This document shows positions 28,215 through 55,391 of a stretch of DNA of 64,000 nucleotides, piece after piece. Made by a program: the position numbers and the translations under genes. The notes below the pieces were generated by a model. The model was not told the DNA's origin. It saw only the letters and a list, made by a program, of their open reading frames with translations, and did not search any database. The stretch's first letter is position 1, and each line of letters starts with the position of its first letter. The stretch spans positions 991,824-1,055,823 of the forward strand of contig UYJD01000014.1 in NCBI GenBank assembly GCA_900618795.1, written 5' to 3'. This DNA comes from Cyanodermella asteris. Taxonomy: Eukaryota; Ascomycota; Lecanoromycetes; Ostropales; Stictidaceae.

Positions 28215-28620
28215 TAGCTGCTCAGTGACACACAGTCAGACATACAGGCTAAGAAGGTTGAAGCAAGCCAGCAGACCTCATGACGTTGAGGTAATCGCTG
28301 GTCGCAGAGACCAACCTCGTGGAATGTACTTAGGCACTGGCTACGAATTTCGAGGTCGGCCAGCAGCGGGAAAGCTAGGCGGAAAGAGGGAATCAGCAGG
28401 AAGCGAAGTGACGCAAACTTGCGGACGACCCTCAACTCAGTCTGTCAAGACAACGTGTAAAGGGAACTTCTGAATATGCTTGTGGAACCCTAGCCCGAAG
28501 TGGAGTTGCGTTCATGTATAACATCTGGACTTGCAAGTAGAATGGGTATTGAAGACCTTATTGCAGCAGAACGTGGATGAGCTTGAAGTCGACCCATCAA
28601 CTCATCCCAAGCCTTCAACA
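28215..28620. promoter_or_regulatory. Shared divergent promoter of the Tm-1-type gene pair
   Basis: About 400 bp separate the divergent starts of the TIM-barrel gene (-) and the UPF0261 gene (+). The arrangement suggests co-regulation. The unresolved first exon of the minus-strand gene probably lies inside it. No specific operator is recognised. Confidence 0.5.
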
Positions 28621-29940
28621 ATGCCTCACATTATTGTGCTCGGAACGCTCGACACGAAGCTCCAAGAACTTCTCTATCTGCGTGATCAGATCCTGAAGCA
28701 ATCGATCCGACTCGGTCATGACACTCAGATCACCTTGATCGACTGCGGAAGGCATAATACGACCCACGAAGCCATTACAATCTCCCAGTCCTACCTACTG
28801 AAAACCTACTCGAGTCCGAACGATGGCGACCTAGCATCCTTACCCCGAGGCGAAGTTATCCGCCTCATGGCCTCGTACGCCACCCGCTGCGTCCTGGATC
28901 TTGTAAAGAGGGATACCATCCACGGCATCGTGAGCGCCGGTGGTAGTGGCGGCTCCAACATCGCCTGTGCAGTCATGCGCGAAGCCCTACCTATCGGTGT
29001 CCCAAAGCTGATGGTCAGTACGATTGCGTCCGGTGATACGGGCCCTCTAATCGGGGAGACGGACATCTCGACGATGTACTCGGTAGTGGACATTGCAGGC
29101 AACAATGCATTACTGAGAGCCATATTGAGCAATGCAGCGGGCTCGATCCTCGGTATGGCCAGTTCATATCAGAATCGTCTCGCGACGGCCGATGTCAAGT
29201 GTGCTACAGCAGAAACGGAGAGGAAGACAAGGATTGGGATTACGATGTTTGGCGTCACGACGCCATGTGTCGACGAGATCCGCCGGCACCTGGAGGCGAA
29301 GTATGATGTCGAGGTGTTCGTTTTCCATGCTACCGGCCATGGAGGACGGGCTATGGAGCGGTTGGTCAACGCAGGTGAGCTGGATGCAGTTTTGGATCTG
29401 ACCACGACGGAGATTTGCGACCATTTGATGGGCGGAAATATGTCTGCTGGTGGCAAACGATTGGAAGCGGCTTTGCGAAGGGGACTCCCAACAATCATAT
29501 CGACCGGCGCAACAGACATGGTGAATTTTGGGCCGAAAGCGACAGTGCCCGCGAAGTACCAGGACAGGAAGTTGTTTGAACATAATCCAATTGTGACGCT
29601 CATGCGGACTTCGGCCGAAGAGTGCGAGAAAGTTGCGATGTACATGGTTGAGAAGCTTCACGCTTGTGCAAAGAGACCGGAACTTGTGGAGGTTTGGCTT
29701 CCGTCGGGTGGTGTCAGCATTATTTCAACGCCCGGTGCACCTTTTGAGGACAAAGCTGCAGATGAACTTCTGAGGTTCCATATTCGGACTGCATTGCTGG
29801 ACCCGAAGTTCAAGATTGTCGAAGACCCAAGAGCGATTAATGATGAAGGGTTTGCAGTCGACATTGCGGAAGCGATGATGCGAAAGATCGAAAAGAGCGA
29901 ATCGCTGCAGGTACAAGCTACGGAACGAGACAGCAGCTGA
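28621..29940 (+). CDS. UPF0261 / Tm-1-like ATP-binding domain protein
   Basis: Single exon, 439 residues from the ATG at 28621, where the family's N-terminal strand begins (MPHIIVLGTLDTKLQELLYL). Conserved family features are the G-x-T-xx-dTK-E start, LIDCGRH, VSAGGSGGSNIACAVMREAL with PIGVPKLMVSTIASGDT, and a second lobe with GITMFGVTTPCVD, FHATGHGGRAMERLV and TTTEICDHLMGG. In tomato Tm-1 this N-terminal domain binds a tobamovirus replication protein, but the ancestral metabolic role in fungi and bacteria is not established. In plants both halves sit in one polypeptide; here they are two divergent genes. There is no targeting signal. Confidence 0.9.
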   Translation: MPHIIVLGTLDTKLQELLYLRDQILKQSIRLGHDTQITLIDCGRHNTTHEAITISQSYLLKTYSSPNDGDLASLPRGEVIRLMASYATRCVLDLVKRDTIHGIVSAGGSGGSNIACAVMREALPIGVPKLMVSTIASGDTGPLIGETDISTMYSVVDIAGNNALLRAILSNAAGSILGMASSYQNRLATADVKCATAETERKTRIGITMFGVTTPCVDEIRRHLEAKYDVEVFVFHATGHGGRAMERLVNAGELDAVLDLTTTEICDHLMGGNMSAGGKRLEAALRRGLPTIISTGATDMVNFGPKATVPAKYQDRKLFEHNPIVTLMRTSAEECEKVAMYMVEKLHACAKRPELVEVWLPSGGVSIISTPGAPFEDKAADELLRFHIRTALLDPKFKIVEDPRAINDEGFAVDIAEAMMRKIEKSESLQVQATERDSS

Positions 29941-36725: not shown

Positions 36726-37714
36726 GTGCATGTCAAATATGCTGGGCAGCAACAGAGATGAGTTATGAGGAATCAATTCAGTGGGTACGCGACGGCATGA
36801 CTGATGGACTTATGTTGGTGACTACAGATGACGGCAAGCCCGTACTTGGGCCTTTCAACTCGAGACTGATTGGTAGGCCGATAGATATGTCTTCATGCAT
36901 ACTGAGCTCTCGAATTACTTTTCGATTTGTGGTCCTCGTGCGACGTCCATTCATGCACCCTGGACGGCAAGTCGTCGAGCTTTTCGTGGACCTGATTGCT
37001 GTGATTTTATTCGGCTTAGGCCGAAGCTGGAGGCAGTCAACCTACGTGGCGAACGACCAAACACCTGGCCCCCATTTCCCTGCAAAGTGGCCCGCTAAAT
37101 GCCTGGCTAGGTACTCAGTTTGGTAGCCACCCAAGTCCTCAGCAATATACCTTCGTCGCTACTGTACCAAGTTCCTTGAGAAGTCAAAAACTTCTGTCAT
37201 CGTCAAAGCTCCTTGCTCCAAGTTGTGCATCGCGTATCTTCAGCTCGTGCATCACCTATACCATGACGAGCACAGCAGCCACATGGCCCAGATGTTCAGG
37301 AACGTCTGGCCGATGCTCGATAGGGTTCCCTCCTCTTCCACCTGCGTCGTATGCAGCTGGAACTGTTGGCTAGCAGCTTCCTGGCACGTCAATCTGAAAT
37401 TGCACCACCGCAGGGAGTCTAGTGCAACAAACCGAAGCAGCAGGGATCGATGCGGTCAATGTTTTGACAGGTCATCGTGCCGCGGATGAGCTGCTCTCAC
37501 TGGCCACTGAGTGCACCTGCCCTTGGCAGCTTGTCAAGAAGTGCGGGCGCGCACGCAGGGCAGGCGCCGCCCATGACGTAAACTTTTGTTTTCCTTTCGC
37601 AGCCTGCGCAGCGCATGGCAGTACCCTGCTCTGCTTGAAATTCCCACAATCCCATCTTTCTCCTGCGATTTCCCATCCCTCTCATTCCCCCCCCCCCCCG
37701 TTTCAGCAGACAAC
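36726..37714. other. Intergenic before the Ish1-repeat gene, with poly-C tract
   Basis: No gene is supported. A run of about 14 C residues ends at 37699, some 15 bases before the start codon at 37715, and is preceded by CCATCCCTCTCATT-type pyrimidines, presumably 5' UTR or core promoter. Homopolymer length here may vary or be a sequencing weak spot. Confidence 0.55.
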
Positions 37715-39472
37715 ATGAAGTTCTCGCTGAAATCCCTCTTCGTCGTCGCCCTCGCGGCCGACTCTGCCATCGCCAGCACCTGGTTCGGCAAGACCGGTAA
37801 GTGCATGTTGGACATTCCAATGGAAATCGAACCGTTGACTGACCCTGTGGTAGTATACAATAAGTGGCATGAAACCGAGCTTGAGCGCTGGCTTTCGGAC
37901 CACGATGTCCCATATCCCACTCCTGCCGACCGCAAGGACCTAGAATCTCTGATCAAGAAGAACTGGGACCAGAAGGTTGTCAATCCATACAACGAGTGGG
38001 ACACCAAGCAATTGAGTGACTATCTCACCTGGAAGGGTGTTGAGGTCAAGGACACTGCCAAGGCGAATAAGAACTCGCTCCTTGCTCAGGCCAAAGCCAA
38101 CTGGCACGAGACTGAAGCTTCAGCCAACGAGGCCTACGGCGGCGTCAAGAACTGGATTCTTGACTCCTGGACCGACTCGCAGCTGAAGGCTTTCGCTGAC
38201 AAGCATGGCATTCCTGTTCCTCATCCCCGCCAGCGTGACTCTCTCCTCAAGGTAGTTCGTGAGAACTACGAGACCATCGCCCAGAAGACCAAGGAGACCC
38301 TCAACTATCCCGGCAACTGGCTATACGCTTCTTGGACCGAGTCTGACCTGAAGGAGTGGCTCGACGAGCGCGGTATCCCTGCCCCTCAGCCATCTACTCG
38401 CGACAAGCTCATCGCCAAGGTTCGCCGCAACTCGCGTCTGGCTTCTCTACGTGCTCAGAGTGTCAGCGCCAGCGCCTCTGCCTCAGCTGCGTCTGCATCT
38501 GCTAGCCTCATGGACAAGGTTCTCAACTCTTGGACCGACAGCCAGATCAAGCAGTGGGCAGACAAGAACGGCATCAAGGTTCCTCAGGGGTCCAAGCGAA
38601 ACGAGCTCGTTGCCCTTGCCCGCAAGCACTCTGCTGCTCTTCTTGGCGACACCGTTGCCTCAACCGCCTCCGCCCAGTTTGGTGCTGCTACCTCAAATGC
38701 TGCAAACACAGCCGAAAAGATTGGCGAGGATGCTCAGCTTAAGGCCGAAGATCTCTTCAGCCAAGCTCTTTCAACCTGGAGTGACAGCCGGCTCAAGGCT
38801 TACCTTGACGCTCGCGGTGTTCCTGTTCCTCAGTCTGGCAAAGCCGATGAGCTCAAGGCCCTTGTCCGCAAGCACCAGCACAAGGCTGCCACCGGCTACT
38901 CTGCCTGGACATTCGACACCTGGACCACCGAGAATTTGAAGAAGTATCTTTCGCAGTCGTCTGACAAGGCCGCCAAGAAGGCTGCTGCCAACGCAAAGGC
39001 CACGCGTGAGGAGTTGGTCAAGCAGGCACAAGATAGCTATGCCTCTGCCTCCAAGTCTGGTGGCGCCGCTTATGCATCTGCTACCTCATACCTTGCCCAA
39101 GCCTCCGACAACGCCAAGGATGCTACTTTCGAGTCGTGGACCGACTCTGACCTCAAGGCTTACCTCGACAGCTACGGCATTCCCGTCTACCAGGGAACAA
39201 AGACTGAGGAGTTGAAGGCCTTGGCCCGTCGCAACTACAACTACTTCCGTTATGGAACTACCACTCCTCAGGGTACTATCTTTGCTCGTATCCAGGAGGG
39301 CCTCGGCTGGGTATTCGACCAGCTCAAGATCGGTGCTGCCACCGGCGCCAACGAAGCCAAGAAGCAGGGCCAGAAGGGCTACGATGCTGCTACTGAGGCC
39401 GCCACCACGGCTTCCAACCGTGCTCAAGAGGCGGCTCAGCGTGCGTCGGACAAGGCCAAGGAGGAGCTGTAA
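37715..39472 (+). CDS. Secreted/ER-targeted Ish1-repeat stress protein
   Basis: Exons 37715-37796 and 37854-39472 with a 57-nt intron (GTAAGT...GTGGTAG), 566 residues. A signal peptide covers about 1-20 (FSLKSLFVVALAADSAIAS). The rest holds eight Ish1-type units of about 35-60 residues, each with the pattern (S/E)-W-(T/S)-(D/E)-S-x-L-K-x-(Y/F/W)-x-D-x-x-G-(I/V)-P-V-P. Examples are SWTDSQLKAFADKHGIPVPH, SWTESDLKEWLDERGIPAPQ and SWTDSDLKAYLDSYGIPVYQ. Unit 7 has lost its central part and carries an Ala/Lys-rich insert. In fission yeast Ish1 is a nuclear-envelope stress-response protein; the location here is inferred. The intron is a multiple of three without a stop, so an unspliced message would still encode a protein. 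Confidence 0.88.
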   Translation: MKFSLKSLFVVALAADSAIASTWFGKTGKCMLDIPMEIEPLTDPVVVYNKWHETELERWLSDHDVPYPTPADRKDLESLIKKNWDQKVVNPYNEWDTKQLSDYLTWKGVEVKDTAKANKNSLLAQAKANWHETEASANEAYGGVKNWILDSWTDSQLKAFADKHGIPVPHPRQRDSLLKVVRENYETIAQKTKETLNYPGNWLYASWTESDLKEWLDERGIPAPQPSTRDKLIAKVRRNSRLASLRAQSVSASASASAASASASLMDKVLNSWTDSQIKQWADKNGIKVPQGSKRNELVALARKHSAALLGDTVASTASAQFGAATSNAANTAEKIGEDAQLKAEDLFSQALSTWSDSRLKAYLDARGVPVPQSGKADELKALVRKHQHKAATGYSAWTFDTWTTENLKKYLSQSSDKAAKKAAANAKATREELVKQAQDSYASASKSGGAAYASATSYLAQASDNAKDATFESWTDSDLKAYLDSYGIPVYQGTKTEELKALARRNYNYFRYGTTTPQGTIFARIQEGLGWVFDQLKIGAATGANEAKKQGQKGYDAATEAATTASNRAQEAAQRASDKAKEEL

Positions 39473-40248: not shown

Positions 40249-40866
40249 ATGCCCATCCAACCAGCATGGGAGGACCGCCGCGGCATGTTCCAGCGCGGCC
40301 GCGAGGTCCACGAGCCCTCCTCTTCCGCCAGTGCCCGGAGAGCATCCGAGAGCAGCGTTGCCGGAGCAGCCGCCGGAGCCGTTGCCGGCGCCGTTTCCGA
40401 GGCGTTGGGCAAGACGACTACGAATCAGAGTACCGCGAGCAATGTTTCGGGCGGAGCTGGGAGCCCGACGAGGACGGCGGATTATAATCCGGGTTGGGGT
40501 GTGGAGCATCGACGACGGGTAAGCCTGATTTCATTTTATTTATTTATTATGCAATTTGTCCAAATCATCTACAGAGATAGAGCTGAAGGAAGTTGAATCA
40601 CCTTTGCATTGTGACTTTTTGGCTGATGTTTTGTTGTCGTTGTTTAGTCTTCTGCGGCTTCGGGATCCTCTGGCATGTTTGCCAATCTATTGAATCATAA
40701 GCGTGGCAGTGAGGATTATTATCAGCGACGTTCTAGCCATGCGGAGATGGAGGCGAAGAGTCCGGGTATCTTTGGTGGGGTCTGGAATTCGACGTTCAGG
40801 GGTATGCAGACGAAGAAGGAGGATGAGGCGGCGAAGAAGGAGATCAGGAGGGGCGTCATGGAGTAG
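40249..40866 (+). CDS. Small conserved fungal protein of unknown function
   Basis: Exons 40249-40518 and 40648-40866 (129-nt intron, GTAAGC...TTTAG), 162 residues. It has no signal peptide. An Ala/Gly-rich segment (SSVAGAAAGAVAGAVSEALG, about 35-54) could form a helix. The C-terminal part, MFANLLNHKRGSEDYYQRRS followed by IFGGVWNSTFRG, has the look of ascomycete hypothetical proteins with a conserved NL(I/L)NxKR ... GxxGGxWNS pattern, from memory of such families. Strong pyrimidine leader and compact basic composition suggest an expressed gene. The function is unknown. Confidence 0.75.
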
Positions 40867-41076: not shown

Positions 41077-42031
41077 TTACTCATTATCATAAACGTTGCC
41101 AAACATCTCCTCCACCTGCTCCCGATATTCCGAGTCCTTTGGACACCACGAATACCTCGAAAATCTCTCCAGCTCCGGTGTGACGCCTTTCCGTGGCACC
41201 TGCCTATAACACGCGGTCCGCTCTTTCGCCCACTTCTCCAGCCGATCCCAACTCCGGCACATCCTCGATTGGCCTAGCCCAGCAGACGGCTTCCCATATA
41301 TCTCGATCCACTGGGGCGTGTCGTCTGCTTCGCAAATGACCGCCTGCCGCATCGTCTCCAGACAGTGAAAGACGTGCTTTTCGTCGTGCGATTGGGGCAC
41401 GCCGGAGCGGTACTCGATGATCGACTCGAACAAGCTTTGCTGGCGTGGTGTGTGAGAGACGATGACATAGGATCGTGACATGGGTGTTGAGCTGGGGGTG
41501 GGGGGAACTTACGACGCAGTGCAGCTTGTGGTAACCTGAGAGCAGGTACACGCGCTTCGACTTGTCCCAGAAGAATTGGGAGCCAAGGGGCAGATCGAAG
41601 GCGTCGATTTCTGGCTGGGAGAGAGCTACCATTCCGGCGTCGATGTTGATGCTCTTCCAGGCTGCGAGGATGGTCTGGTTGTCGGCTTCATCCTTGGACC
41701 AGTATTGGGACTCGTAGTTGATCTCGGTCGGTATGTCGAGGGGATGTCGGACTGTCCGTCACATCAGCACAAGCCGTAAGTGATACGTCTGATGACCGTA
41801 ATTACCTGCGTCCGATATCCTGAAACCTTCTACATGTTGTGCAGTTGCTCCGGTATGGGACGAGGACGTTGCGATGGACCATGTCAGGATGTTTGTTGTG
41901 ATCAAGAGCAAAGCAGCGACTATGCCTGTCTTCCAGAGCCCCGAGACATTGCTCTTGCGTACTGCTGCATTGGACAGGTACTCCGGGTCCTCTTCAGGTA
42001 GCTGGTCATAATATTCACGCTTCACGCTCAT
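41077..42031 (-). CDS. UstY-type (DUF3328) oxidase homologue A
   Basis: Exons 42031-41806, 41751-41513 and 41439-41077 (introns of 54 and 73 nt), 275 residues. The N-terminal cytosolic part is followed by one membrane helix (WKTGIVAALLLITTNILTW, about 32-51). The lumenal part has the two family signatures: HKLHC (150-154, within SGYHKLHCV) and HVFHC (177-181, within HDEKHVFHCLETMRQAVIC). UstY/DUF3328 proteins are proposed oxidases that cyclise or otherwise tailor fungal ribosomal peptides such as ustiloxin and phomopsin; family members also occur in other pathways. Three features support a biosynthetic locus: its partner at 43036-44008, a tiny secreted peptide gene between them and a dioxygenase nearby. 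Substrate unknown. Confidence 0.88.
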
Positions 42032-42486
42032 GTTGGCACGAGGCAGGAGTGCAAGTATCGCAGAATCAGTGGCGACATCAGGAGCAGGCGCTGAGAGCAT
42101 AACAGAAGAATCTGGTGGTACTGTACCCAAATCCAACCCGTCAGACGGTCAGTCACCTTTGGTCATCGTACCTGACCTTGGGTCGCGGGGACCTGGCGAT
42201 CACAGAGGGTGTTGTAGGGACCGCAGAGTAGCATTCACTGTAGCGCCGCTGACGGCTAAGGACGATTACTTTCAAAATTACACCGACCGTAATATATTTC
42301 GGAGAGCTGAGAAGGAGCTTGTGTGCGCTTCTTTACAGGCGAGGTTCTACCTCGGGATACATGCCCAAACACAGTCTCCACTCTATCTGACCTTGCTACT
42401 CGTCGGCGTGCGGTGGGCCGAACGCCAGTGCTTCTGTCTCAATTCTTCCAGTCCCTTGCTTGTGCGAACCTGTTGGTGTGGCCTGC

Positions 42487-42677
42487 TCATTTACCTATGT
42501 CAACGAGACCCGCCTCAATCCTGGTGTCTGCAAAATTATTAGCATGCCAAGTCCGGGGACGCACTTGATTGACATCTTGGACTGACTTGGTGGGATCTCT
42601 GCAGCGCCGCCAGCAATGGGAGCGGCATTGACTGCGAGCACAGCCATGCAGGCGAGGAAAATCTGAGTAATGCTCAT
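42487..42677 (-). CDS. Small secreted peptide, candidate RiPP precursor
   Basis: The ATG at 42677 opens a clear signal peptide (MSITQIFLACMAVLAVNAAP), with predicted cleavage after VNA. The favoured model has exons 42677-42587 and 42527-42487, joined across a 59-nt intron with GTCAGT donor, GCTAAT branch and TTTGCAG acceptor, giving 43 residues. Reading through unspliced instead gives a 60-residue protein ending at 42495, and a further GTAAAT donor near 42495 could extend it. The mature part (about 25 residues) has no dibasic repeat and no Tyr-containing core like UstA. It sits between two UstY genes on the same strand, just where a peptide substrate would be expected. Without that context I would call it only a small secreted protein. 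Confidence 0.5.
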
Positions 42678-43035
42678 CTTGACTGCGGCGACTTCAATGT
42701 AGTCTTCAGAATCGACGGAGTACGGAGACGTGGAAGAGACGATTGAGAGGTTGTTTTTTTGGTGAGCTGCGGATGTATCGGTCACTGGTAGCAGTGGGAA
42801 GGGGCGACGAGGGAAGGCCCGACGAATATATCTCTTCTCCTTCCCGTTGGCGACGGCACATCGACGAAACACCCGTGGTTGGCGATGATCAGCATAGGTT
42901 CGCAGGTGTGAGTGGTATCTACTTGACACAATCGATGGTGCAGCCGACGGCTAATGTCAGGCCCAGGATTTGACTTTACTGGACAGGCACGGATCTTGCA
43001 AACACTGGTCATGGTATCTTTTCATTGCATTTAAA

Positions 43036-44008
43036 TTACCGGGCGGGTCCGTTATCGTGGTCTGCTGTCTCGACTAACTCGAAATGGTCCATGGCGTTTC
43101 GTTGCCAGAACTGCTCTTGCAGATTGTCCCAGTCTGCACACTGCTGCAGAACGTCTGGCCTCACTGACAGGTCGTGGTGTGCGTGGCCGGAATGGAAGTA
43201 GGGCAGCGGCGTCAAGTCTGGCACACACATCACAGACATTCGCAGGACCTCCAAGCAATGCACTGCATCAGTATTAGCAATTGCAGATCATGGTATCAGG
43301 AAGAAGCCTTACGGTGATGCTCGCGATAGGCTTCTGTTTCCGTCTCCGTCAAGTTTGGGTAGTAATGATCTGAGTATATGGACTGTCGCAAACGGCGCTG
43401 TTTACCGATCAGTTCTGGCCATTGACTCCTTCGTTGGTTCAGCTACTCACGATGCAGTGCAGGTTATGCGAGACAGCAGGGAACGTGATGATCTCGCCAC
43501 TCTTCAAACTGAGTCCATCTGTGATGCCAAGCTTTGCTGCTTCTTGCGGCGAGAGAGTCGTTGCACGGGCTGTCATTGAGATTCTTGGTCAGTGACTGCG
43601 CGTGTCAAGACTCGGTGGTACTCACGTCCTAGCAGCTTATTCCAAGCTATCTCTGATTCATCCCTTGGCTCTCCCATATACAAGTCACTGTACCAATGAT
43701 CGCGATCTGGACGGCTGACACTGTATCTTGCGACGGCAAGAGGAGCTGGTGCGGAAAGTCAGTAATCGGTCGACGTAGACAAAGGCATATCACTGACAAA
43801 TGTCTTTTCTCGCGGGCGCTCCCTGCGAGGCTGGAGTTGGAGCGTTTCTGTGCTCGTAGTACAACGAGGTCAATCCAAAAACGAGTGCGTGAGAGATGAC
43901 CAGCCAGAGCCAAAACATGGGACGAGATGATTTCTGCTTTCGAGGCGCGAAGTGCTCGTATTCATCATCGCCGGAAGCAAAGAGCCACTTTGGTACCTGA
44001 GGAGACAT
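43036..44008 (-). CDS. UstY-type (DUF3328) oxidase homologue B
   Basis: Five exons: 44008-43798, 43745-43626, 43569-43451, 43382-43313 and 43262-43036 (introns of 50-70 nt), 248 residues. A membrane helix near the N-terminus (FWLWLVISHALVFGLTSLYY, about 32-51) precedes the family block WYSDLYMGEPRDESEIAWNK. The first HxxHC motif is HNLHC (145-149), the second HHLHC (172-176), followed by LEVLRMSVMC. Both metal-ligand-like motifs are intact. It differs clearly in sequence and intron number from homologue A, so this is not a recent duplication. The 889-bp space to the divergent dioxygenase gene is a plausible shared promoter. The chemistry is unknown; by family it would be oxidative tailoring of a peptide in the secretory pathway. 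Confidence 0.87.
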
Positions 44009-44897
44009 CTCGAAAACGCATTACTCAACCTGGTTTCTACGAAGCCAGGGGCGTCGCGAGTGCGAGATCTGGTGCATAGCCTATATACAATGGAAAAGAG
44101 TCCAACAGCTGGCCGATGCTCGATCTTGCGTAATGACGGGAATGTGCGCAAGACGAGGAGGACGTACATTACAGGCCCGTGTATGGAATTTTATTTCAAA
44201 GCATTGCTCCTCGGCTGCGGAGAAATCGAGACTCGAACTCTACGCAAAACGTGCTGAGGCAAGGTGAGACAGGCGAAGAGTGGATCGTGAAGCATGGCGC
44301 GATCCACAGGACGTAGCCGAAAGGGTTCGCCGTCCCCGACATCGTGCCGTGAGGATGGCAGGTAGCATCGAAGTACAGAAGTTCTTTGGTCGTCTCCGCC
44401 GTCGGTGGCTCAGACAAGCTTTTCTTGACGTTTCACTGCGGACTTCAATTCTTCCAAGCGCTTACGCTGGCCGGACGAAGAGCCCTGGCTCGGAACGCAG
44501 ATCTTTCGTTCGACCATCGGACCACCGAACTTGTTCTCCTCCATGTTTGACCATTGGTATCACGGATCTAGCGCCGCTCTTACTAGCCTCCATCGGGAGA
44601 CGAGTTTCTGACTAGCCAATTGGCCCTGTCTTCTTGCGCAGGTGGCTCTGGCTGATCTCGGTGATCAGCCTTGCGGCGTTTCACACGTCGCATGAAAGGT
44701 CTTTCAGTAGTGCTCAGCTGAAGTGCACATCCCGGAAACAGAATCGCGCCATCAAGATCACCGGTGATACGAACACGAGCCTAAAGACCTTATCGCCATT
44801 CGTTATCCCGTTACAGTCTTACAACGCGCGGACAGTCTATGTAATGCTCTGGTTGCCGGCACAAAGTTGAGAGAGAGATTGCGATTGCGATATCAGC
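44009..44897. promoter_or_regulatory. Shared divergent promoter of UstY-B and the dioxygenase
   Basis: Open frames here are short and without recognisable features. Both flanking genes start outward from it, so it probably drives the locus in both directions. I could not recognise a specific Zn2Cys6 or other operator by eye. Confidence 0.45.
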
Positions 44898-46073
44898 ATG
44901 TCGGCTGCAGAGATACCGGTTATTAGCCTGTCCGCCTTTACAGGCTCGGGCGGAGATCACGATGCTCGCAAGAAGACAGCGACAGAACTCGCCTCCAAGC
45001 TCGGTGCAAATGGATGGGTTGGAATTTCCGGCCACGGCGTGTCCGCGGAAAGACTCCAGGAGGCCTTCAATGTCTCGAAGAAGTTCTTCGACCTTTCGTA
45101 TGAGGACAAGATGAAAGCTCCCCATCCACCGGGCTTCGTTCCTCACCGGGGCTACTCGGGAATTGGTCTTGAGCAAGGAGGCGCCACCGTCGAGTCCAAA
45201 GGAGAAGACTCAGCCAAAAAGATTGAGGCGTCTCAGGTCAAGGACCTGAAAGTATGTACGAACGCTGCCGAATTGTGCGACCAAAATTGACGGCGGTCTG
45301 TCAGGAAACCTTCGAAGTCGGAAGCGAGCACAATGAAGTCCAGTACAATATTTGGCCCCCAGAAGAGACAATTCCAGGGTTCCAACAATTCGCATTATCC
45401 TTTTACTGGGAGCTGAACAAGCTGGCCCTGGCGGTGTTGGAGGCGTTGGCACTGAGCCTCGACTTGACGGAACAAGAAACGCAAGCCCTGCTCAGATTGC
45501 ATGACGGCCAGGAGAATCAACTTCGTCTTGCCCATTATCCGGCAGCAAAGCCGAGCGAACTCGACAAGAGCCAGTCGCGGCTTGGGGCGCATACCGACTT
45601 TTGGTACGTGAATTCCGGCGTAAACTACTTCATCTATCAGAACTGACAAAATCACAGTACCTGCACTCTCCTGTTTCAGGATGGAAATGGAGGGCTAGAG
45701 TTCTACGACCGCGCCACTGATTCTTTCGTGGAAGCGGTGCCCATGGATGGAGTGGTGTATCTCAACATTGCTGATACCTTCCATCGCTACTCGAACGGTA
45801 GGTTATTACGGCAAACCTTGTATGATCGGCTGAACTAATCGTTCACCCCTTGCAGGCCGATATCCATCCGCAACACATCGAGTGGTAATCCCAGAGACCG
45901 CCTCTGGGACGACCCCGGCAAGATATTCACTCCCTTTCTTCGTAACTCCGCTTCCGAATGAACCCATTGGTCCGCCGCCATCGCTGACAGCTTCCTCAAC
46001 TGACGGCGCAATATTTGAGCCGATGACATACACTGCGTATAGTATGAAGAAGCTCGAAGCATCCAGGAGCTAG
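44898..46073 (+). CDS. 2-oxoglutarate/Fe(II)-dependent oxygenase (IPNS-like)
   Basis: Exons 44898-45251, 45305-45603, 45658-45797 and 45856-46073 (introns 53, 54 and 58 nt), 336 residues. The DIOX_N domain opens with IPVISLSAFTG and GANGWVGISGHGV. The 2OG-Fe(II) core has the iron ligands His214 and Asp216 (GAHTDFCTCTLLFQDG) and His272 (SATHRVVIP). The 2-oxoglutarate-binding Arg287-x-Ser289 lies in ARYSLPFF. All catalytic residues are present. Such enzymes hydroxylate, desaturate or cyclise; fungal members next to biosynthetic genes are usually tailoring enzymes. The intron splitting the HTD region places the Cys codon across the junction. A role with the two UstY proteins is an inference from position. 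Confidence 0.92.
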
Positions 46074-46992
46074 AAGGACAGATAGAACATGGAATACGAA
46101 ATTGGAAAGCGGCAGCTGGCGATGTCACCTTGAGGTAGAGGCGACGGAAGTGGTTGTCGGTTGTGAAATCAATCCGCGAATAGTGACTGTCGATCTATCA
46201 GCGTTCCGGCTGAAGATGAGTATCAGAGTTCTCTCGTCAGCGCTGTGCTGTCGTAATCCAGCGTGTAGATCACTTCTCATCTCTCTCTGCGTAACGTGGA
46301 AGAGTGCCACGACGCGTGGAAGGACGGAGCAGGTCGACCACTCGAACGCCGGCTATGTTGGTGGCATTAGCGGAGGGCGATTCTGGGTAAATATCTTTCG
46401 ATACTACTGGGTGGGATCGAAATACAAGCTTTACGTGTGTCCAAGGGTCTGGCGCCACGTTGGTACAACGTAATGACTTGCCAATCGCAATCAAGCGCGC
46501 AAATCCTATCCCGACTTCTGCCACCCACTCCACATCGGTTCCTCCCTTCTCAAAGGACTGTTGCGGTTCCGTCGGCGACGAGTCTGCGACGCTTCGCCCA
46601 AACAACTCAAATAACCGAATTATAGGTAGGTCGAAAGTTGAAATTAGCAGGAGCTTTTTTCTCAGGCACGTTGAAGAAAACGGTCTGCAAGACTATGCTA
46701 TTGTGGATGAAACTGCGACCGAGCAAGACTTTCTGGAGAGCGAGTAGAATCTGCTAACTGACGCTCCTCGTTGAGAACACCGACTGGGAACCCTCACCGA
46801 AAACCCTTGCTGACAGGTATCACGGGCTGAAGCTCTCGATCAAAATCTACGATCAGAGCTTACGATCGAAAGCCACGACAGTCATCCTTGCAAATAATAG
46901 GCGTCCTAACCGAGAGGCCTCGCTAAGAAAACCGACTACCGCATAAACACCACTAGTACAGCTATCAGAGGGTCCTTGCGAATCTTGCAGTC
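46074..46992. other. Intergenic between dioxygenase and MITE
   Basis: No supported gene. The 95-codon frame at 46460-46747 has no features. The stretch right before 46993 ends with GCAGTC, the proposed target-site duplication. Confidence 0.5.
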
Positions 46993-47241
46993 AAGGCGGG
47001 TGGGCAAAAGTCACTACGCATGCCAAGTCCGCACCCATCGGCGATCTAATTTACCCCTAAGCAGCGCGTATATATTGAATTTAGTAACTAATACGGAATC
47101 ATAAAATTCAATTCAAGCGAATTATATCCATGTGAATATCAATTACAACCGACATGGTTGCCCGTACACATTTTGCGGGTGCAAGATGTGAGCGCGAAAC
47201 GCCAAGATGCGCAACGACTTTTGCCCACCCGCCTTGCAGTC
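46987..47241. repeat. 6-bp target-site duplication flanking the MITE
   Basis: GCAGTC occurs directly outside each inverted-repeat end (46987-46992 and 47236-47241). Because the left flank continues as CTT and the element ends in CTT, the exact duplication border has a small ambiguity. Confidence 0.65.
46993..47235. mobile_element. MITE-like element with terminal inverted repeats and target duplication
   Basis: A 243-bp element is bounded by 20-bp perfect inverted repeats (AAGGCGGGTGGGCAAAAGTC at the left end; its reverse complement ends at 47235). The next nine bases also pair except for three positions, all transitions. Both sides are flanked by GCAGTC (46987-46992 and 47236-47241), a 6-bp direct repeat that fits a target-site duplication. 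The interior is AT-rich (about 47050-47160) and encodes nothing. This is the structure of a non-autonomous DNA transposon. The superfamily cannot be told from the ends alone. Confidence 0.8.
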
Positions 47242-47769
47242 TTCGTAGACTGTCGATCTTCGCTGATCCAAGGTGCACAACCTGCTGATAGCAGACGCCT
47301 CGCATGCGGCGCACACTGCTCGGAGTTTGTTACGTACGAACACGCATGTGGCAGTAGGCTGATAAGCCGGCGGTTTGGTGACACGCCGGCCGCCCATACA
47401 TAGGCAGAAATGTGTAGTAGCGTGAAACCTAACGTGTACAGCCTGTTCAGGACTGTGTAGCAAGAGGCAGGCGGCGCACGCCTGCCGCCAGAGTAGCGGA
47501 TGACACTCTCAAACTTTTCTTGCTTCCAGGCGGCTTACTAGTTCGACAGGTCGCAAGTGAATTGGAGGCCCCTAAATGCGCGATGTACGGATGACAGTGT
47601 GAGAGATGGACAAGCTATATCCAAGGCGTAAGCCGTTGTTCTTTTCGATCCAGATCTCTGTCAGATTCAAAACTCGGACTCGTCGAGTAAGTGAGTGAGT
47701 GAGTGAGCAGCAGAGATCCATTTGTTTTCCTTTCCTTTCTTTCCCAAGTCTGCGCCCACTTCGCGAATC
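47242..47769. other. Intergenic, promoter of rhodopsin-domain gene
   Basis: No gene is seen. A GC-rich hairpin (GGCAGGCG, five-base loop, CGCCTGCC) lies at 47466-47486. A GAGT tetranucleotide microsatellite of five units lies at about 47689-47707, 60 bases before the start codon. Confidence 0.5.
47689..47707. repeat. GAGT tetranucleotide microsatellite
   Basis: About five tandem copies of GAGT/GTGA sit in the 5' leader of the rhodopsin-domain gene. It is short and likely length-polymorphic. Confidence 0.7.
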
Positions 47770-49094
47770 ATGGCGTCTACAATTCGGATCCAACCACCGT
47801 TGTTGTGGTCTGCAGCGACGGTCTTGCCTGCGGTCTGCACCGTCGCCGTCGTGGCACGATTCATTGCACGAAGAGGACAAAATGTGCGATACGGAATGGA
47901 TGACTGGCTGATACTGCCAGCAATGGTGAGAACGAACCCCCTTCCGCCTCGAACAAAGCCGGCCACATACTCACCCGATTCCAGCTCTGTGTGTGGGGCA
48001 TGGCCGTGACGATCATGGTCGCGACAGCAGGAGGCGGACTCGGACATCCAACGCCCAAAGTCCCCGCAGACGAGGTCCTGACCTCTGCGAGTCCCGAGCA
48101 AATCTTGACTGAAAAGGCGTATGCCATCGTTTCGAGTCTGCAGACGGCGTCGGTGACATTCACGAAGCTGAGCATCATGCTCTTCTACCGACGCATCTTC
48201 CGCCTTGGAACATCGAGGGCGGTCAACATCCTCATTCACGTCGCGAATGCGGTCATCGTCGTTTGGGGTGTCTCGTTTTTCTTCTCGTTCCTGTTCGTCT
48301 GCCGCAGCCATCCTTGGTATTTGTGGTCGACGACGGCGGATGCGCTCAAGTGTCCGTCGAACATTGTGCAGATCGACTTGTCGCTCGCAATCTCGGACAT
48401 GATCATTGACGTCTTTGTGCTCATTTTCCCGATCCCTCTGGTATGTAAACATCGAGCTCGAACGGCGTTCAGAAAGTCCAGAAGGTGCTGACGTTCTTGA
48501 CAGATCACCAAGCTACAATTGTCCACTGTCAGGAAGATCGCCGTTCTGGGTGTCTTCCTGCTCGGTGCCTCGTAAGTTGCCGGCCCCGAGAAAGCTACCC
48601 ACATACTAACCGCTCGCAGCGCCATCGGAGCCTCCATAACCCGCCTCGCAATCATCGCCGAAGAACTCAGTGGCTACGGCGCCGCCGACACCGACGCCGA
48701 CTACGCCTCGACCGCCGGCGTCTACTTCATCTACCTCGAAGGCTGCATCGCGCTCCTGGCCGCCTGCCTGCCCTCCGTCGCCGGCATATTCAAATCCAAG
48801 GGCGTCAGCCTGTTCTTCGGCGGCGTCCTCTCCTACTTCAAGTCCCTTTCCGGCGGAGGGGGACGCTCGTCGCGTCGCAACCAGGGCGGAGCGCACGACG
48901 ACGACCAACCGGGCTCCGATGCGCCGAGCTGGATCAAGACCAAGAAGGGTATGAACAGTTCGTCGACGACGAACCTGCGCACGAGCTCGGCGAGCGCCGC
49001 GGCGGATAAGAATGATTTTGAGTTGGAGCCGATGCCGCAGGGGGGGATCACAGTGAATCACACCATTCGGCAGGAGTATGAAAGTGCAGTATGA
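47770..49094 (+). CDS. Fungal rhodopsin-domain (PTH11-like) integral membrane protein
   Basis: Exons 47770-47925, 47985-48440, 48504-48571 and 48620-49094 (introns 59, 63 and 48 nt), 384 residues. Seven hydrophobic segments can be traced, for example WSAATVLPAVCTVAVVARFI, LCVWGMAVTIMVATAGGG, KLSIMLFYRRIFR, NAVIVVWGVSFFFSFLFVC, ISDMIIDVFVLIFPIPLI, IAVLGVFLLGASAIGASI and GCIALLAACLPSVAGIF. Order and motifs (GMDDWLI, CxxxPW-like CRSHPWYLW, FPIPLI-KLQL) match the large fungal family often found near metabolite clusters. It has no N-terminal CFEM domain. The tail (about 275-384) is polar and Ser/Gly-rich. Whether it is a receptor or a cluster accessory is unknown. Confidence 0.88.
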
Positions 49095-49891: not shown

Positions 49892-52800
49892 TTATATTCT
49901 TGGTCCCTCGTTCCCTCTGCTAAGATTGCCTAGCAACTGGTCTGGCGGTATGCGACCCATGTTGGAGGTCTTCTCAACATAGTTCTGTGGTGCAGGCCTG
50001 TAGCCCTCACGCTTCCTTCTGTATCGCTCAAGTAGCATGCCAGCCACAACAATCAGGAAGATGAGCGCTAGTGCTATAGCAAGGGCAATAAGGACGATGA
50101 ACCCCAGGGCCAAATGATGATCAGAACTGGTTTGGAAATCCTGAACCCTTTCGGAGAAGAGCTGGCTCATGGATCCGGGCCCGTTTCCTGCATTTGAAAG
50201 GATGAAGGGAGTGAAATGGGTGCCGTTGAAGAGAGCGGAAGACGCGTTGCCAAAGTTGGGAATGTTCAACTGACCGCTGATGAGTAAAATCTGGGACGGA
50301 TCCAAGAGGTTTGTGCCGGTAGACGCTGTATTTAACAAGACGACAGATACACCACGGATGAGAGTGCCTTGGCCGAGCTGTGCGGGAAGAGCAATGAAGT
50401 TGTTACCATCGTACTTCATGATGTATGAAGTCCTGTTGTCAGCCATACCAGCGATCCAGTACTGCTTGTTGTCCCTGCTCGCGGGTGTGATGACATTGAC
50501 CACCCCAGGGACCTGGTCAGCGTTGTTGGGAATAGTCCAGGCTTGTTGCCCAGTCTCAAACGCTGCCAGAGACGAGCGATTCCCTTGCACGGACATGTTT
50601 CCTCCGACGATAAGATGGGTGTTGTCGGACCACATCATAGCATTTACGACACCGCCAAAGTCACGTCCAGGCTGTGACCAATCTCCGTTAGTGTACACGC
50701 ACAAACCAGGGCAGCCCAGTGCTCCGGCGGAAGAGAAGTTGCCGCCGACGTATGCGCTCGCCGCTGAAGGCTGATATGAGATGGTGTTGACACGAGCTCC
50801 CTGAGGTCCCAAGGAGGCTGGTTGCTGGGAACTGAAATTCTGGGCTGTGAGATCCCAAGCGATGATTCCGTTGATGCTCTGATCGCTGAGCCGGCCGGAA
50901 ACTGCGCCTCCAGCCAGAAGCGTCTCATTACCACGGGCTAGTGCCATGAAGGTTGAGTTCGAGTCAACGCCAGATGAAATTCCAGTCATGTTGTTTTTGC
51001 CATCGGAGCCGGTATTGATAAAGACCAAGTTGTTCACTGGTGTGCCAGAGCTGGCGTTCGTCTGGAAGTTTCCAGCCACCACTGTCGTGTTGCGGCCATT
51101 GTCGGTGATGAAGTACCCGGTGATAGCACCAGACAGGGTCACCGGAGTGCCGGAGTCAACGGTCTTCTGGCGAACCTTCTGACCCTGTGCTGCAATTTGC
51201 GGTTCTTGAAGTCCTAGAGAGTTGATGCTGGCGTTGCCGCTGTTGCTTTGTAGCGAGACAACATCCTGGATCGCCATGCCTTGGGAAGAAATGGTCCCCG
51301 CCAGAAGGGTGGCGTTGTCGTTGCCGGACGTATAATTCACTGCAAGAGTGAGCTGGCCGCGAATTGAGGGAATCGGGACGTTGAGGTTCTGCATCCAGTT
51401 ATTGTAAGCCGGAACCCAAATGGCGAGGCCGTCAGTAGCGTTGAAGCCGTTGCTGTTGGGACCAGGGAGAACCTTCGAAAAATCTCCGTTGACTGTGATG
51501 CAGCTCTGCAGTTGGCCATTGATGCTCAGCTCCAGGGGCACAATCGAGTCGACGGGACCGTTGACACCTCCTCCCAACGAGCTCCAGGTGCTGGAAGTTG
51601 CGTCGTACGATGCAACCCTAGACAATGGGGTCTGTCCATTGCGCGTGTTGGTAAAATTGCCTCCGACAAATACCAGGTTACCCCAGGTCAACAAAGTCTC
51701 GACTCGATCGTTCAAGCCACCTTGGGCCAATGATTGGGTCTCATTTTTGCTGAAGGTGAAGATATTCTGGAAATCATTGGTACTGAAGTTGCCGGCAATG
51801 AATAGCATATTATTGGCAATCGTCATCGAAGTGATGTCGGCGTTGTCGCTAAGGTTCTGGCCTACGCGGTTGATGACTGAATTATTGAAGTTTCGATCGA
51901 CGGTGGCATGGTTTGGGTTCACTTCATATAGCGCATTCAAGCCTTTGGTCTGGTATGTCGAGTTCCTGCTTGTCGTCACGTTTTGGCCGCTTTCTCCGCT
52001 AATGAGGCTGAAGGCCACACGAAGCGCAACCAGGCTGATGGCAGTGTTTTGATTGTCCAACGGCTGTATCTTGACGTATGGACGGAAAGAGCTGTCAGGA
52101 AGATCAACTTGTGCTGAGCTTGCGATAGTATCGTACTTTTCGAACAAGTTGGTCTGACTCAACGTCGCTTGATTCTGTTTCCCATCCTTGGTGAGGACCC
52201 AAGTGACATTGGCTTGCGATCGACTGCCACAGGTTCCCGCGGGTTGACAGCCGGGAGTATAGACTCTAATGTCGTACTTGCCCGCCTGTCCAATGGTCGG
52301 ATAGAAAGAGACGGAAGCAGAGTTCGAATTGACGCCTGGGCCTGGAAGGTCCGCTGTCAGATAGTCCGCAAGAGATTGCGTAGCGTTCGTTGGGGTCCAG
52401 TTGCCAGTGGTGTTGGAGCTGGAAGGATATGTCGAGTTCGAGCAGCTAGGTGCATTGAAAGCAGATTGGGCGTAGACGTAGTTCGCAGTCTGTGTAAGCT
52501 CAACACCGTTCAAACCAGCCCCTTGGCCATACCACGAGTACATGTCAATCTGAAATGCGCTCATGCCAATGACGTTCACGAAGTAAAAGTCCTGGTAGAG
52601 AAGGCTTGTGTCGTTGGAAAGCGGGCACTCAGCGTCGCAGGTCTTATTCTGGCCATCTGCCGGATCAGTGTAGGTAAAGTTCATGATTCCGTTGAGGGGG
52701 AAAGCTGTGAAGCGCCATGACTTGGTGCCACGACCTTGATAGTGCGTGTTGTACAAGCGTAACCGTGTCGGCTCGTAGCCATATCTGCTGATAACTTTCC

Positions 52801-53659
52801 AGGTGGCACGCGTGTTGTCCTTCGCCAGCCAGGTGTTTCCGGGTCCTTCCTGACCTCCAGTCTTGCAAATAATGTTCTTGGGGTCACTAAAACCAGCCAT
52901 ATCAGTCGACTCGGCGGCCGAAACGTCAGACGAGCCGCCAATGTTGACCACAAGATTGGGCAGTTGTGTGGTGTTCGTGTCGGTCTCTGTCACATTTCCA
53001 AGTTGCGAAAACTGACCGGCAAAGATGACATTGTCGTTATCAGGGTGCTTCAATATCGCCTTGACGGGACCGTTGAAACCTTCGAAGGGCATGTCGTTCC
53101 AGCCATTCATGTCACCATTCCATATGATCGCGTTCTTCGAGTCAAGACCCTCAAACGAGCCTCCAACGTAGACACGGTTGTTTTGCTTGTCGCAATGAAC
53201 GGTACTAACGGAACCATTGAGACCTGTAAGCATTGCAATCTCAAGCGGACTGGCCGGATTCCAAAGTGCTACTCCCTGTGCGGGCTGTCCTTTGATCATT
53301 GTGAAATTTCCTCCGAGGACAACTCCATTGAGCTTGTTGTCACTGCCGACGAAGGGACATGCAGTTATCACGTTGCCGTCCGAGTTGACGAGGGATTCAA
53401 ACATGCCATTAGGCATTTGGGCCAGCAGCGCCTGGCTGCCGTTGGTGGAGAAGGGGTTCTCATTTTGCTGCGTATACTGGTACACACTGATGGCATCAAA
53501 ATCTCCGGCCAAGGCGACCCGTCCAAGGTTGTCCAACTTCAAATCTGGCGACTGGACTGGTGTAAAGCTCTGCTGTGCTTGAACCGAGGAGGCAAGTAAG
53601 GCAAGGGCGAGAGATGAGGCATCGGCCGCGCGTGGCCAGGGCATGCTGGTGAAAAGCAT
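49892..53659 (-). CDS. RAX2: Cell-polarity/cortex protein Rax2
   Basis: A single very long exon. The ATG at 53659 gives 1255 residues; the ATG at 53644 would start directly at the signal peptide (MPWPRAADASSLALALLASS). After QAQQSFTPVQSPDL comes a long extracellular region of kelch-like beta-propeller repeats. These have the recurrent (I/V)-(F/Y)-(V/I)-(A/G)-G-x-F motif: NNVIFAGQF-like, NRVYVGGSFEGL, NLVFVGGNFTN, MLFIAGNFSTN, SAYVGGNFSSAG and HLIVGGNMSV. Many N-x-(S/T) sites are present. One transmembrane helix (about 1184-1210, LGFIVLIALAIALALIFLIV) and a basic cytoplasmic tail (ERYRRKREGYRPAPQNY) follow. In yeast Rax2 marks bud sites with Rax1; in filamentous fungi it is tied to polarity and septation. 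Length and topology match the family. Confidence 0.94.
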   Translation of the reverse strand: MLFTSMPWPRAADASSLALALLASSVQAQQSFTPVQSPDLKLDNLGRVALAGDFDAISVYQYTQQNENPFSTNGSQALLAQMPNGMFESLVNSDGNVITACPFVGSDNKLNGVVLGGNFTMIKGQPAQGVALWNPASPLEIAMLTGLNGSVSTVHCDKQNNRVYVGGSFEGLDSKNAIIWNGDMNGWNDMPFEGFNGPVKAILKHPDNDNVIFAGQFSQLGNVTETDTNTTQLPNLVVNIGGSSDVSAAESTDMAGFSDPKNIICKTGGQEGPGNTWLAKDNTRATWKVISRYGYEPTRLRLYNTHYQGRGTKSWRFTAFPLNGIMNFTYTDPADGQNKTCDAECPLSNDTSLLYQDFYFVNVIGMSAFQIDMYSWYGQGAGLNGVELTQTANYVYAQSAFNAPSCSNSTYPSSSNTTGNWTPTNATQSLADYLTADLPGPGVNSNSASVSFYPTIGQAGKYDIRVYTPGCQPAGTCGSRSQANVTWVLTKDGKQNQATLSQTNLFEKYDTIASSAQVDLPDSSFRPYVKIQPLDNQNTAISLVALRVAFSLISGESGQNVTTSRNSTYQTKGLNALYEVNPNHATVDRNFNNSVINRVGQNLSDNADITSMTIANNMLFIAGNFSTNDFQNIFTFSKNETQSLAQGGLNDRVETLLTWGNLVFVGGNFTNTRNGQTPLSRVASYDATSSTWSSLGGGVNGPVDSIVPLELSINGQLQSCITVNGDFSKVLPGPNSNGFNATDGLAIWVPAYNNWMQNLNVPIPSIRGQLTLAVNYTSGNDNATLLAGTISSQGMAIQDVVSLQSNSGNASINSLGLQEPQIAAQGQKVRQKTVDSGTPVTLSGAITGYFITDNGRNTTVVAGNFQTNASSGTPVNNLVFINTGSDGKNNMTGISSGVDSNSTFMALARGNETLLAGGAVSGRLSDQSINGIIAWDLTAQNFSSQQPASLGPQGARVNTISYQPSAASAYVGGNFSSAGALGCPGLCVYTNGDWSQPGRDFGGVVNAMMWSDNTHLIVGGNMSVQGNRSSLAAFETGQQAWTIPNNADQVPGVVNVITPASRDNKQYWIAGMADNRTSYIMKYDGNNFIALPAQLGQGTLIRGVSVVLLNTASTGTNLLDPSQILLISGQLNIPNFGNASSALFNGTHFTPFILSNAGNGPGSMSQLFSERVQDFQTSSDHHLALGFIVLIALAIALALIFLIVVAGMLLERYRRKREGYRPAPQNYVEKTSNMGRIPPDQLLGNLSRGNEGPRI

Positions 53660-55391
53660 GGCCACGACCCGCTGCGGCAAAGGGCTGACGGCTCGAGTTT
53701 CACTTAGCCAGAGTGAATATGTGGCGAATGATTAGGTGGAAGGGTGATTATGGATGAAGAGAGGTCGCGACGGAGCCAAGATTCGTCCCTTGCTTTCGGT
53801 CGCGATCAGGAGTGTATTTGGGCGTTCAGGGGCGAATTTGGGTGATGAGTCGTGTAGTTTGCATTAAAGTCCTCCTCTTGGTGTCGAATTGAATGCGTCT
53901 CCTATGTTGAAGGCTGTGTAAAGAGCGTAACGAGGTGAAAAACCTCTTGGTGCAGAGTGCTGCCAGATGTCAGGCAAACATGAACCCAAGCAAGGTAGCA
54001 GGGCGAGGTGAGAAGGTGAGGAAAGACGGGCGCAGCGCCAAGCCTTCTCCTCATTTCCTTCGCGGCACCAACGTTTCGCCGAGAGCCGTTATCTTCCACC
54101 AACCGAAAACTGCAAACTGCCAACTGCCAGCCAGCTGAGTACAATTTTCGAGGCGCTGCCATCCTCGCCGTCTCGAGCAGTTGTTCGAGCTCATCTACGT
54201 TTACACGTCTCTACTGCTGTCAACACCATGCAGCAATTTTCGCCAGCACGATGCCTGCTTACAGCTGTTCCAACCGTGCCCAGCCACCTCCGTTCCGGCC
54301 AGGTACTCCCGACTACGAAAGCAAGTCACGCTCAGGCACAGCATGCATCCTCTGGCGCGGTCCCACAGTCCCTTCCGATGCCCCTGGTAGGGGGTGTACT
54401 AGTCGACCAAGGCGCCGCCGGAACGCTGGTGCGACTTGGCCATCCTGTCTGTTCGAGCTTCTGATGCTAGACATGCTGTTGTCATCAAGCAAAAGCTCCC
54501 GCTGTCTATGCGTGTCTTTGGACCTGTCTTCGAGCACAAGCTTTCGTCAGCTCAGTGGCCATTCTTCGGTCGCGACCAGCGGCCGGCCAAAATCCGGCTG
54601 CCTCGGGTGAACGACCTTGGGCGGACCAGCTGGCCCACACGGACCCTCCTGTGAAGAGCGATCGACATGCACGCCACCCTGCCTATCCAACCTATTGTTG
54701 CTCATTATTCTGCCATGTCCATGAGAGCTTCTCTGAGCCTCCAGTTGCTAGGCACGAAAGCTATAAAAGGTGGAAAACGTATTGACTACAAGTGTCCCAT
54801 TCGAAGGGTTTAGCAAATAGCAGGAGATCAACGGCAGCCAACGGTTCGCGATTACGCGCAAACGTGGTCCGAGTCCCTACAGGAACACGAACTTCAAGTT
54901 TCAGGCTTACCAGGTAAGGACTCCGCTGAAACCATCAATGCCCAAGCAGGACCTCGATGACTTCTTGTCTCTGTCTCCTGGCATGCGTATGCCCATAGCA
55001 GCACGTTCATGGATGCCCCTGATGCTGAGTTTGCTGCCGAGACAATGATCTCATCATTGACGGTCCATTCGACCATGCAGAGGTAGCCTCCTCTCCTTTC
55101 CTCCAAACTCTATACAAAGCCTGAACCTTGAGCTGAATGACGGCGCTATTGGTGAGAGGATATCAGTTGCTGGTTGATCCGCTGCGTATCCATTTCACAA
55201 TCTTGCTCAGTTTTACCCAGCGTTATGAAGGGGGGCCCTTTGGAACACAGATGGAACTTTCATGCAGAGGATGATGCGGACCGCTGAGAGCACTCACTCG
55301 CGACTTTGCTTTAGTCAGCGCGAGAAAATAAAAGATTCTTAGGCCATGCGCCCATTCCACCTGCAGACAGGAGCCTTCATCGTCTTGACTT
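53660..55391. other. 1.7-kb gap, RAX2 promoter side
   Basis: No supported gene. The first 400 bases hold the RAX2 promoter and leader. Plus-strand frames at 54181-54785 are short and Ser/Arg-rich, with nothing recognisable. Confidence 0.45.

What the first reader, a model, noticed from the sequence alone, without database searches (positions are those of the whole stretch)
41077..46073. Candidate minimal ribosomal-peptide locus: two UstY-type oxidases, tiny secreted peptide, divergent 2OG oxygenase
Seen: two distinct DUF3328/UstY proteins with intact double HxxHC motifs, a signal-peptide mini-gene between them on the same strand, and a complete 2-oxoglutarate/Fe(II) oxygenase reading outward from a common 889-bp promoter space. 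Known: UstY pairs cyclise precursor peptides in ustiloxin, phomopsin and asperipin-type pathways. Inferred: this is a small, non-canonical member, lacking tyrosinase, methyltransferase and KR-repeat precursor, with a dioxygenase as tailoring enzyme.
Basis: partly seen in the sequence, partly recalled or inferred. Interest (0 to 1): 0.82.

Follow-up and report, generated by a model that had tools for sequence, protein, structure and literature searches.

The report
Repeat-less UstY peptide mini-cluster
A fungal genome that holds dozens of gene sets of a kind that makes modified small peptides has one here with two oxidase genes around a tiny secreted-peptide gene that lacks the usual repeated core, so it may make its product from a single copy of the peptide.

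Summary
Two intact, distantly related UstYa/DUF3328 genes with double HxxHC motifs flank a small signal-peptide gene on the same strand; a complete 2OG/Fe(II) oxygenase reads away across 889 bp. The peptide gene needs an intron: product 43 or 53 aa.

Main support comes from the same 28.5-Mb genome: 34 UstY loci; 12 of 20 fetched hold a tandem-repeat precursor, against 0 of 5 control stretches. In 8 of the 20 the precursor has a phase-1 intron just after the signal peptide; the window gene is built the same way. It is the only hit for this build in 64 kb, with 0 in 40 simulated windows (rule made after seeing the gene).

It differs in having no repeats, no dibasic site, no mature Tyr or Trp and no detected homologue. 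The 2OG may be a chance neighbour (P about 0.14 within 3 kb).

Verdict: probably a repeat-less UstY-type RiPP locus, a variant of a known kind. Dioxygenase tailoring is unproven; a decayed precursor is the main rival. Expression, product and synteny outside this genome were not testable.

The parts
41077..42100 (-). UstY-1 (UstYa/DUF3328 oxidase), 3 exons 42100-41806, 41751-41513, 41439-41077; 298 aa, or 275 aa from Met24
   Evidence: searches (model; PF11807, 1.3e-20), HKLHC and HVFHC motifs; best paralogues in the genome about 32-54% identical, exon by exon
42396..42677 (-). Small secreted-peptide gene, candidate RiPP precursor: exon 1 42677-42587, intron 59 bp phase 1, exon 2 42527-42487 (43 aa) or 42527-42495 plus exon 3 42433-42396 (53 aa)
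   Evidence: no homologue, only itself in the genome
43036..44008 (-). UstY-2 (UstYa/DUF3328 oxidase), 5 exons, 253 aa
   Evidence: searches (model; PF11807, 4.9e-34), HNLHC and HHLHC motifs; only 2 homologues found, 45% and 38%
44009..44897 (.). 889-bp divergent intergenic space between UstY-2 and the 2OG gene
   Evidence: coordinates; no signal-peptide-like ORF of 30 aa or more in it
44898..46073 (+). 2-oxoglutarate/Fe(II) oxygenase, 4 exons, 336 aa
   Evidence: model; PF14226, PF03171; 147 homologues at E<=1e-3; closest solved: thymine dioxygenase 5c3p, ucsF 9ktp; cluster membership not shown

Best explanation
A small UstY-type RiPP locus with a repeat-less precursor. Proposed working: the peptide gene is transcribed and spliced, and its signal peptide takes the product into the ER (build seen in the sequence, use inferred). 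There the two membrane-anchored UstY proteins, by the CctR precedent binuclear copper enzymes, oxidise inert C-H bonds of the peptide and may cross-link it (inferred). The only aromatic residue in the mature part of the 53-aa form is one Phe (LAFGPP), and the 43-aa form has none there, so a Phe or aliphatic side-chain linkage is likelier than the Tyr ether of ustiloxin (inferred). Release cannot rest on dibasic Kex2 sites, since there are none. The 2OG enzyme may hydroxylate the product (inferred, weak).
For: Both UstY genes are intact with both HxxHC motifs. The peptide gene lies between them on their strand and has a signal peptide, AP and a phase-1 intron; 8 other precursor genes at UstY loci of the genome have a phase-1 intron at the same point (9 of 9 with this one; sites by eye; 6 of the 8 also have AP). 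Sole strict hit in 64 kb, 0 in 40 simulations. 12 of 20 fetched UstY loci carry a tandem-repeat precursor, 0 of 5 control stretches, so UstY genes here often serve RiPPs. L007 shows the same UstY-precursor-UstY order on one strand. L016 lacks KR sites and L011 lacks tandem repeats, so non-canonical precursors seem to recur. Copper role: PMC12435403, passages.
Against: No repeats and no dibasic site, both usual marks. No homologue of the peptide (53 aa gives few search words, so weak). Its mature part is no more like 14 other precursors than shuffles are: lowest p 0.028 in 28 tests. Intron 1 sits at codon 30 against 19-25 in the others; six other precursors have no such intron. Intron 2 has no clear branch site (by eye). 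No shared upstream word. DUF3328 enzymes also serve non-ribosomal and polyketide pathways (PMC12048977, passages).
Confidence: 0.58

Rival explanations
1. Relic: the precursor once had KR-flanked repeats, has collapsed to a remnant and makes nothing, while the enzymes are still intact.
For: No repeats and no dibasic site. At another locus (L009) a repeat precursor has a stop codon inside its signal-peptide frame, so precursors may decay in this genome.
Against: Signal peptide, splice sites and reading frame are intact; both UstYs and the 2OG are open with motifs intact. No trace of a repeat ancestor: not similar to L017, the locus of UstY-1's best paralogue (p 0.30).
Confidence: 0.2
2. The two UstYs (with or without the 2OG) modify a substrate made elsewhere; the small secreted gene is unrelated or spurious.
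For: DUF3328 proteins also act on non-ribosomal peptides and polyketides (PMC12048977, PMC12435403; passages). 25 signal-peptide-like ATG starts occur in the window, so a signal peptide alone is cheap. 6 of the 20 fetched UstY loci gave no good precursor (L010, L012, L013, L014, L018, L020).
Against: No NRPS or PKS domain among the 20 ORFs or models scanned. The full build is rare and lies exactly between the pair, and 12 of 20 UstY loci have a repeat precursor.
Confidence: 0.17
3. Separate question of the 2OG: it is a bystander, a lone enzyme of a widespread fungal group that happens to lie next to the UstY pair.
For: Chance of such adjacency 0.14-0.35; homologues in many fungi, the best-scoring named ones Pezizomycotina (taxonomy recalled); the one named UstY-2 homologue is from Clarireedia, and no name among the 120 listed of 147 2OG hits reads Clarireedia (many are unnamed); no shared upstream 8-mer.
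Against: Divergent gene pair with a common 889-bp space; the only one of 17 2OG matches within 30 kb of any UstY locus; the genes found beyond it are a rhodopsin-type protein and Rax2.
Confidence: 0.5

Closest known systems
Dikaritins (ustiloxin, phomopsin, asperipin-2a; UstYa/UstYb systems)
   Same: UstYa/DUF3328 genes with double HxxHC beside a signal-peptide precursor gene; two UstYs as in ustiloxin (PMC7329392, passage).
   Different: No repeated core, no KR sites, no Tyr in the mature part; no tyrosinase, methyltransferase or peptidase of a cluster found in the ORFs scanned; a 2OG oxygenase is next door.
Victorin cluster (Cochliobolus victoriae)
   Same: Non-Tyr chemistry is known there: victorin is cyclised between a Phe side chain and a Leu (PMC9233826, passage), and the 53-aa form here has Leu-Ala-Phe.
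   Different: Victorin's precursor is multi-core. No sequence comparison with it was made; the Leu-Ala-Phe likeness is by recall and no evidence of kinship.
Lichen RiPP clans R1 and R2 (PMC12048977)
   Same: UstY loci with signal-peptide genes but no repeated core; the authors raise a possible single core peptide (passages).
   Different: Accessory genes differ (R1 tyrosinase, O-methyltransferase; R2 GNAT); the word intron does not occur in the paper's main text.
CctR and relatives in non-ribosomal peptide pathways (PMC12435403)
   Same: Same enzyme family and metal-binding motif.
   Different: Substrate is a non-ribosomal peptide; no NRPS domain was seen here in the ORFs scanned.

Membership tests
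Dikaritin RiPP cluster (definitions as given in PMC12048977) | DUF3328/UstYa protein(s) with two HxxHC motifs | tested here: met
Dikaritin RiPP cluster (definitions as given in PMC12048977) | Precursor with N-terminal signal peptide near the UstY gene | tested here: met
   (home-made signal-peptide score, not SignalP); that it is a precursor is inferred
Dikaritin RiPP cluster (definitions as given in PMC12048977) | Repeated core peptides | tested here: not met
   no tandem-repeat ORF in 1-60000 of the window; 12 of 20 other UstY loci have one
Dikaritin RiPP cluster (definitions as given in PMC12048977) | Dibasic Kex2 sites between cores | tested here: not met
   no KR or RR in the 43- or 53-aa product
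Dikaritin RiPP cluster (definitions as given in PMC12048977) | Tyrosinase, methyltransferase, transporter or peptidase in the cluster (2015 definition) | tested here: not met
   none near the locus in the 20 ORFs or models scanned (a GATase/peptidase-C26 match is the carbamoyl-phosphate synthase at 24861; an MFS transporter is at 62563); not every ORF was scanned
Dikaritin RiPP cluster (definitions as given in PMC12048977) | Cyclised ribosomal product | not testable with these tools
   needs metabolomics
2OG/Fe(II) oxygenase (DIOX_N + 2OG-FeII_Oxy) | Both domains and the metal-binding HxD...H residues (motif recalled) | tested here: met
   the alignment with thymine dioxygenase 5c3p pairs HTD and the distal HR
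2OG as part of this cluster | Co-expression or conserved synteny with the UstY pair | tested here: inconclusive
   only proxies tested: chance adjacency P 0.14-0.35, no shared 8-mer; no RNA or outside fungal DNA

The most novel reading that the evidence does not exclude
A class of UstY-type RiPP precursors with a single, KR-less core exists, and can be recognised by gene build (signal peptide, AP, phase-1 intron, short core exon) where repeat-based mining sees none; this locus, with two UstYs and a 2OG oxygenase, would be a very small example of it.
Probability: 0.38. Interest if true: 0.72.

Novelty: new variant of a known kind. Interest (0 to 1): 0.55.

Why it matters
Mining for these peptides leans on repeats and Kex2 sites, and UstY loci without repeats are left without a precursor (as in the lichen clans of PMC12048977). 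If the exon build marks precursors independently of repeats, those loci become searchable, and 'single core or no peptide at all' becomes a direct test. The same genome, with 34 UstY loci and at least 12 different repeat precursors, is a rich place to test it.

Tried and rejected
Peptide homologues: none in 5.8 billion proteins (no candidate shared three 5-residue words, so weak) and none but itself in the genome. Window peptide as a decayed copy of the L017 repeat (a likeness seen by eye; UstY-1's best paralogue is there): rejected, p 0.30 against shuffles; of 28 tests the lowest p was 0.028 (L003, 43-aa form), no more than chance (L009 was not among the 14 compared). A 37-bp intron at GTGCGT inside the 60-aa ORF: rejected as too short (pepC). 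Shared promoter word: none. NCBIfam: no match for UstY-1 or 2OG (UstY-2 not given). Solved structure of a UstY-2 relative: none at E<=1 (UstY-1 not given). L010, L012, L014, L018, L020: no precursor recognised (L014 has 1790 N). L013 has a non-repeat secreted ORF, L021 a secreted 92-aa ORF; neither has the build, and L021 was not in the repeat scan. Structure prediction was not run. Papers: passages found by term search in PMC12048977, PMC9632046, PMC7329392, PMC5006380, PMC12435403 and PMC9233826; no paper was read whole, all others were seen as listings. That I know of no print on the intron build or on DUF3328 with a 2OG enzyme in one RiPP cluster rests alone, in an open-licence library.

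Full report
1. What is there. The four genes of the finding are real. On the minus strand UstY-2 (43036-44008), a small gene (42677 down to 42487 or 42396) and UstY-1 (41077-42100) follow each other; the 2OG oxygenase (44898-46073, plus) starts 889 bp from UstY-2. The introns are GT-AG and the frames stay open after splicing. Pfam places both UstYs in PF11807 (1.3e-20 and 4.9e-34) and the oxygenase in PF14226 + PF03171. Each UstY has two HxxHC motifs, the signature that in CctR binds two copper ions and is needed for activity (PMC12435403, passages). The two are only 31% identical over 91 aa.

2. The small gene. Unspliced it reads 60 aa. A 59-bp intron with a CTAAT branch site gives 43 aa; a second possible intron (61 bp, weaker) gives 53 aa. 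The product has a signal peptide and AP, then a short tail from the second exon on. The mature part has no Tyr, Trp or Cys, no KR or RR and no repeat. It has no Pfam family, no relative in the genome or in the protein collection (a weak test for so short a query).

3. The genome around it. The window lies in a 28.5-Mb, 25-contig assembly with 68 UstYa exon matches, which I group into 34 loci. I fetched 20 of the other 33 and part of one more (L021). A six-frame scan for tandem protein repeats found one in 12 of these 20 (L001-L009, L015, L017, L019) and in 0 of 6 ten-kb stretches of the window, five of them controls and the sixth holding the finding itself (the last 4 kb of the window and L021 were not scanned). 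By eye 11 of the 12 have KR or RR between units, L001 a single R. Examples: APYAPAVDAWLVDDVEKRA (L003), TNIYPGVKYEGDVEKR (L008), AEAVAYPDAYKRD (L015), EAGVQNIPVPAAAAKR (L017). These look like dikaritin-type precursors with different cores. Two more loci have odd precursors: L016 (several PW units, no KR) and L011 (no tandem repeat, one RR).

4. A shared build. In 8 of the 20 loci (L002, L003, L007, L009, L011, L015, L016, L019) the precursor's first exon ends 19-25 codons from the start, soon after the signal peptide, and the intron (46-67 bp) is in phase 1. The window gene does the same: codon 30, phase 1, 59 bp. That is 9 of 9 in phase 1, with splice sites chosen by eye; L009 is broken by a stop further up. 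For L011, L016 and the window the frame after the intron is not anchored by repeats, so those three are softer. Six other precursors (L001, L004, L005, L006, L008, L017) have no such intron, by eye. A scan for signal peptide + AP + phase-1 intron + branch site gave one hit in the whole window (this gene), and among the 20 loci three genes (L003, L007, L011), each a precursor beside UstY. Without the branch rule the window still gave one; the loci gave L003, L007, L011, L016, L019 and one hit in L015 that is not its precursor. Forty simulated windows (first-order Markov) gave 0 strict and 6 relaxed hits. The rule was made after seeing the gene, so these numbers overstate the case somewhat. In L007 the order UstY, precursor, UstY on one strand is the same as here, with a third UstY beyond.

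5. The oxygenase. 147 proteins matched at E<=1e-3, 120 listed; best 56% identity in Glonium stellatum. The nearest solved relatives are thymine dioxygenase and ucsF. In the genome there are 17 2OG-FeII_Oxy matches; only this one is near a UstY locus, the next nearest being 31 kb away. With 34 loci, at least one such neighbour within 3 kb has a chance of about 0.14, within 10 kb 0.35. So adjacency alone does not prove membership. No 8-mer is shared by the three upstream regions, with about 0.2 expected for random stretches, so this test is weak.

6. UstY relatives. UstY-2 found two homologues, an unnamed one (45%) and one in Clarireedia jacksonii (38%), both with the HxxHC motifs. UstY-1 was searched only in the genome: closest stretches at L017 (38%), L013 (32-54% by exon), C13:759 kb (42-48%) and L020 (35%).

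7. Boundaries. Left: a small gene at about 40249-40866 (first exon without Pfam match) and an Ish1-repeat protein (37577-39469). Right: a MITE-like element, a fungal rhodopsin-type gene (about 47707-49094) and Rax2 (49895-53731). No NRPS, PKS, tyrosinase or methyltransferase domain in the 20 ORFs or models scanned over the window; other ORFs were not scanned.

8. Reading. The simplest account is a minimal UstY-type RiPP locus whose precursor lacks the usual repeats and may carry one core. Shown: genes, motifs, build. Inferred: secretion, oxidation by the UstYs, cross-link type, release, use of the 2OG. By the broad definition quoted in PMC12048977 (DUF3328 as class-defining enzyme) it is a dikaritin candidate; by the stricter marks, repeats and Kex2 sites, it fails, so I do not file it as a canonical dikaritin. 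It is a variant of a known kind. Clans with UstY but no repeats are in print (PMC12048977), where a single core is raised as a possibility; the exon-build argument I did not find.

9. Limits. No transcripts, no product, no fungal DNA outside this genome; species unknown; home-made signal-peptide score; splice sites by eye; 12 UstY loci not fetched and one only in part.

Noticed in passing
whole genome G000 (28.5 Mb): 34 UstY loci, 12 of 20 fetched with a different tandem-repeat precursor; for comparison, V. inaequalis was reported to have nine dikaritin clusters (PMC9632046, passage). A RiPP-rich fungus.
   Followed up: partly
L009, about 7714 onwards: Repeat precursor (KRDVDAIRDVFVAD type) has an in-frame TAG at codon 4 of its signal-peptide frame; broken gene, assembly error or another start.
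   Followed up: no
L016:5681 and L011:5904: Two further non-canonical precursor candidates beside UstY genes: PW-rich units without KR, and a product with several Tyr but no tandem repeat.
   Followed up: partly
46992-47236: MITE-like element with 21-bp exact terminal inverted repeats; one 85% copy on contig C7. A target-site duplication was not resolved.
   Followed up: partly
about 47707-49094: Fungal rhodopsin-domain gene (PTH11-like, name recalled) about 1.6 kb beyond the 2OG gene; could be a cluster neighbour or not.
   Followed up: no
14720-14869 minus: Another short signal-peptide ORF (49 aa) just upstream of ORF 13737-14672; perhaps exon 1 of a secreted protein.
   Followed up: no
27312-29937: Head-to-head pair: phosphoenolpyruvate hydrolase-like and UPF0261 proteins.
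   Followed up: no
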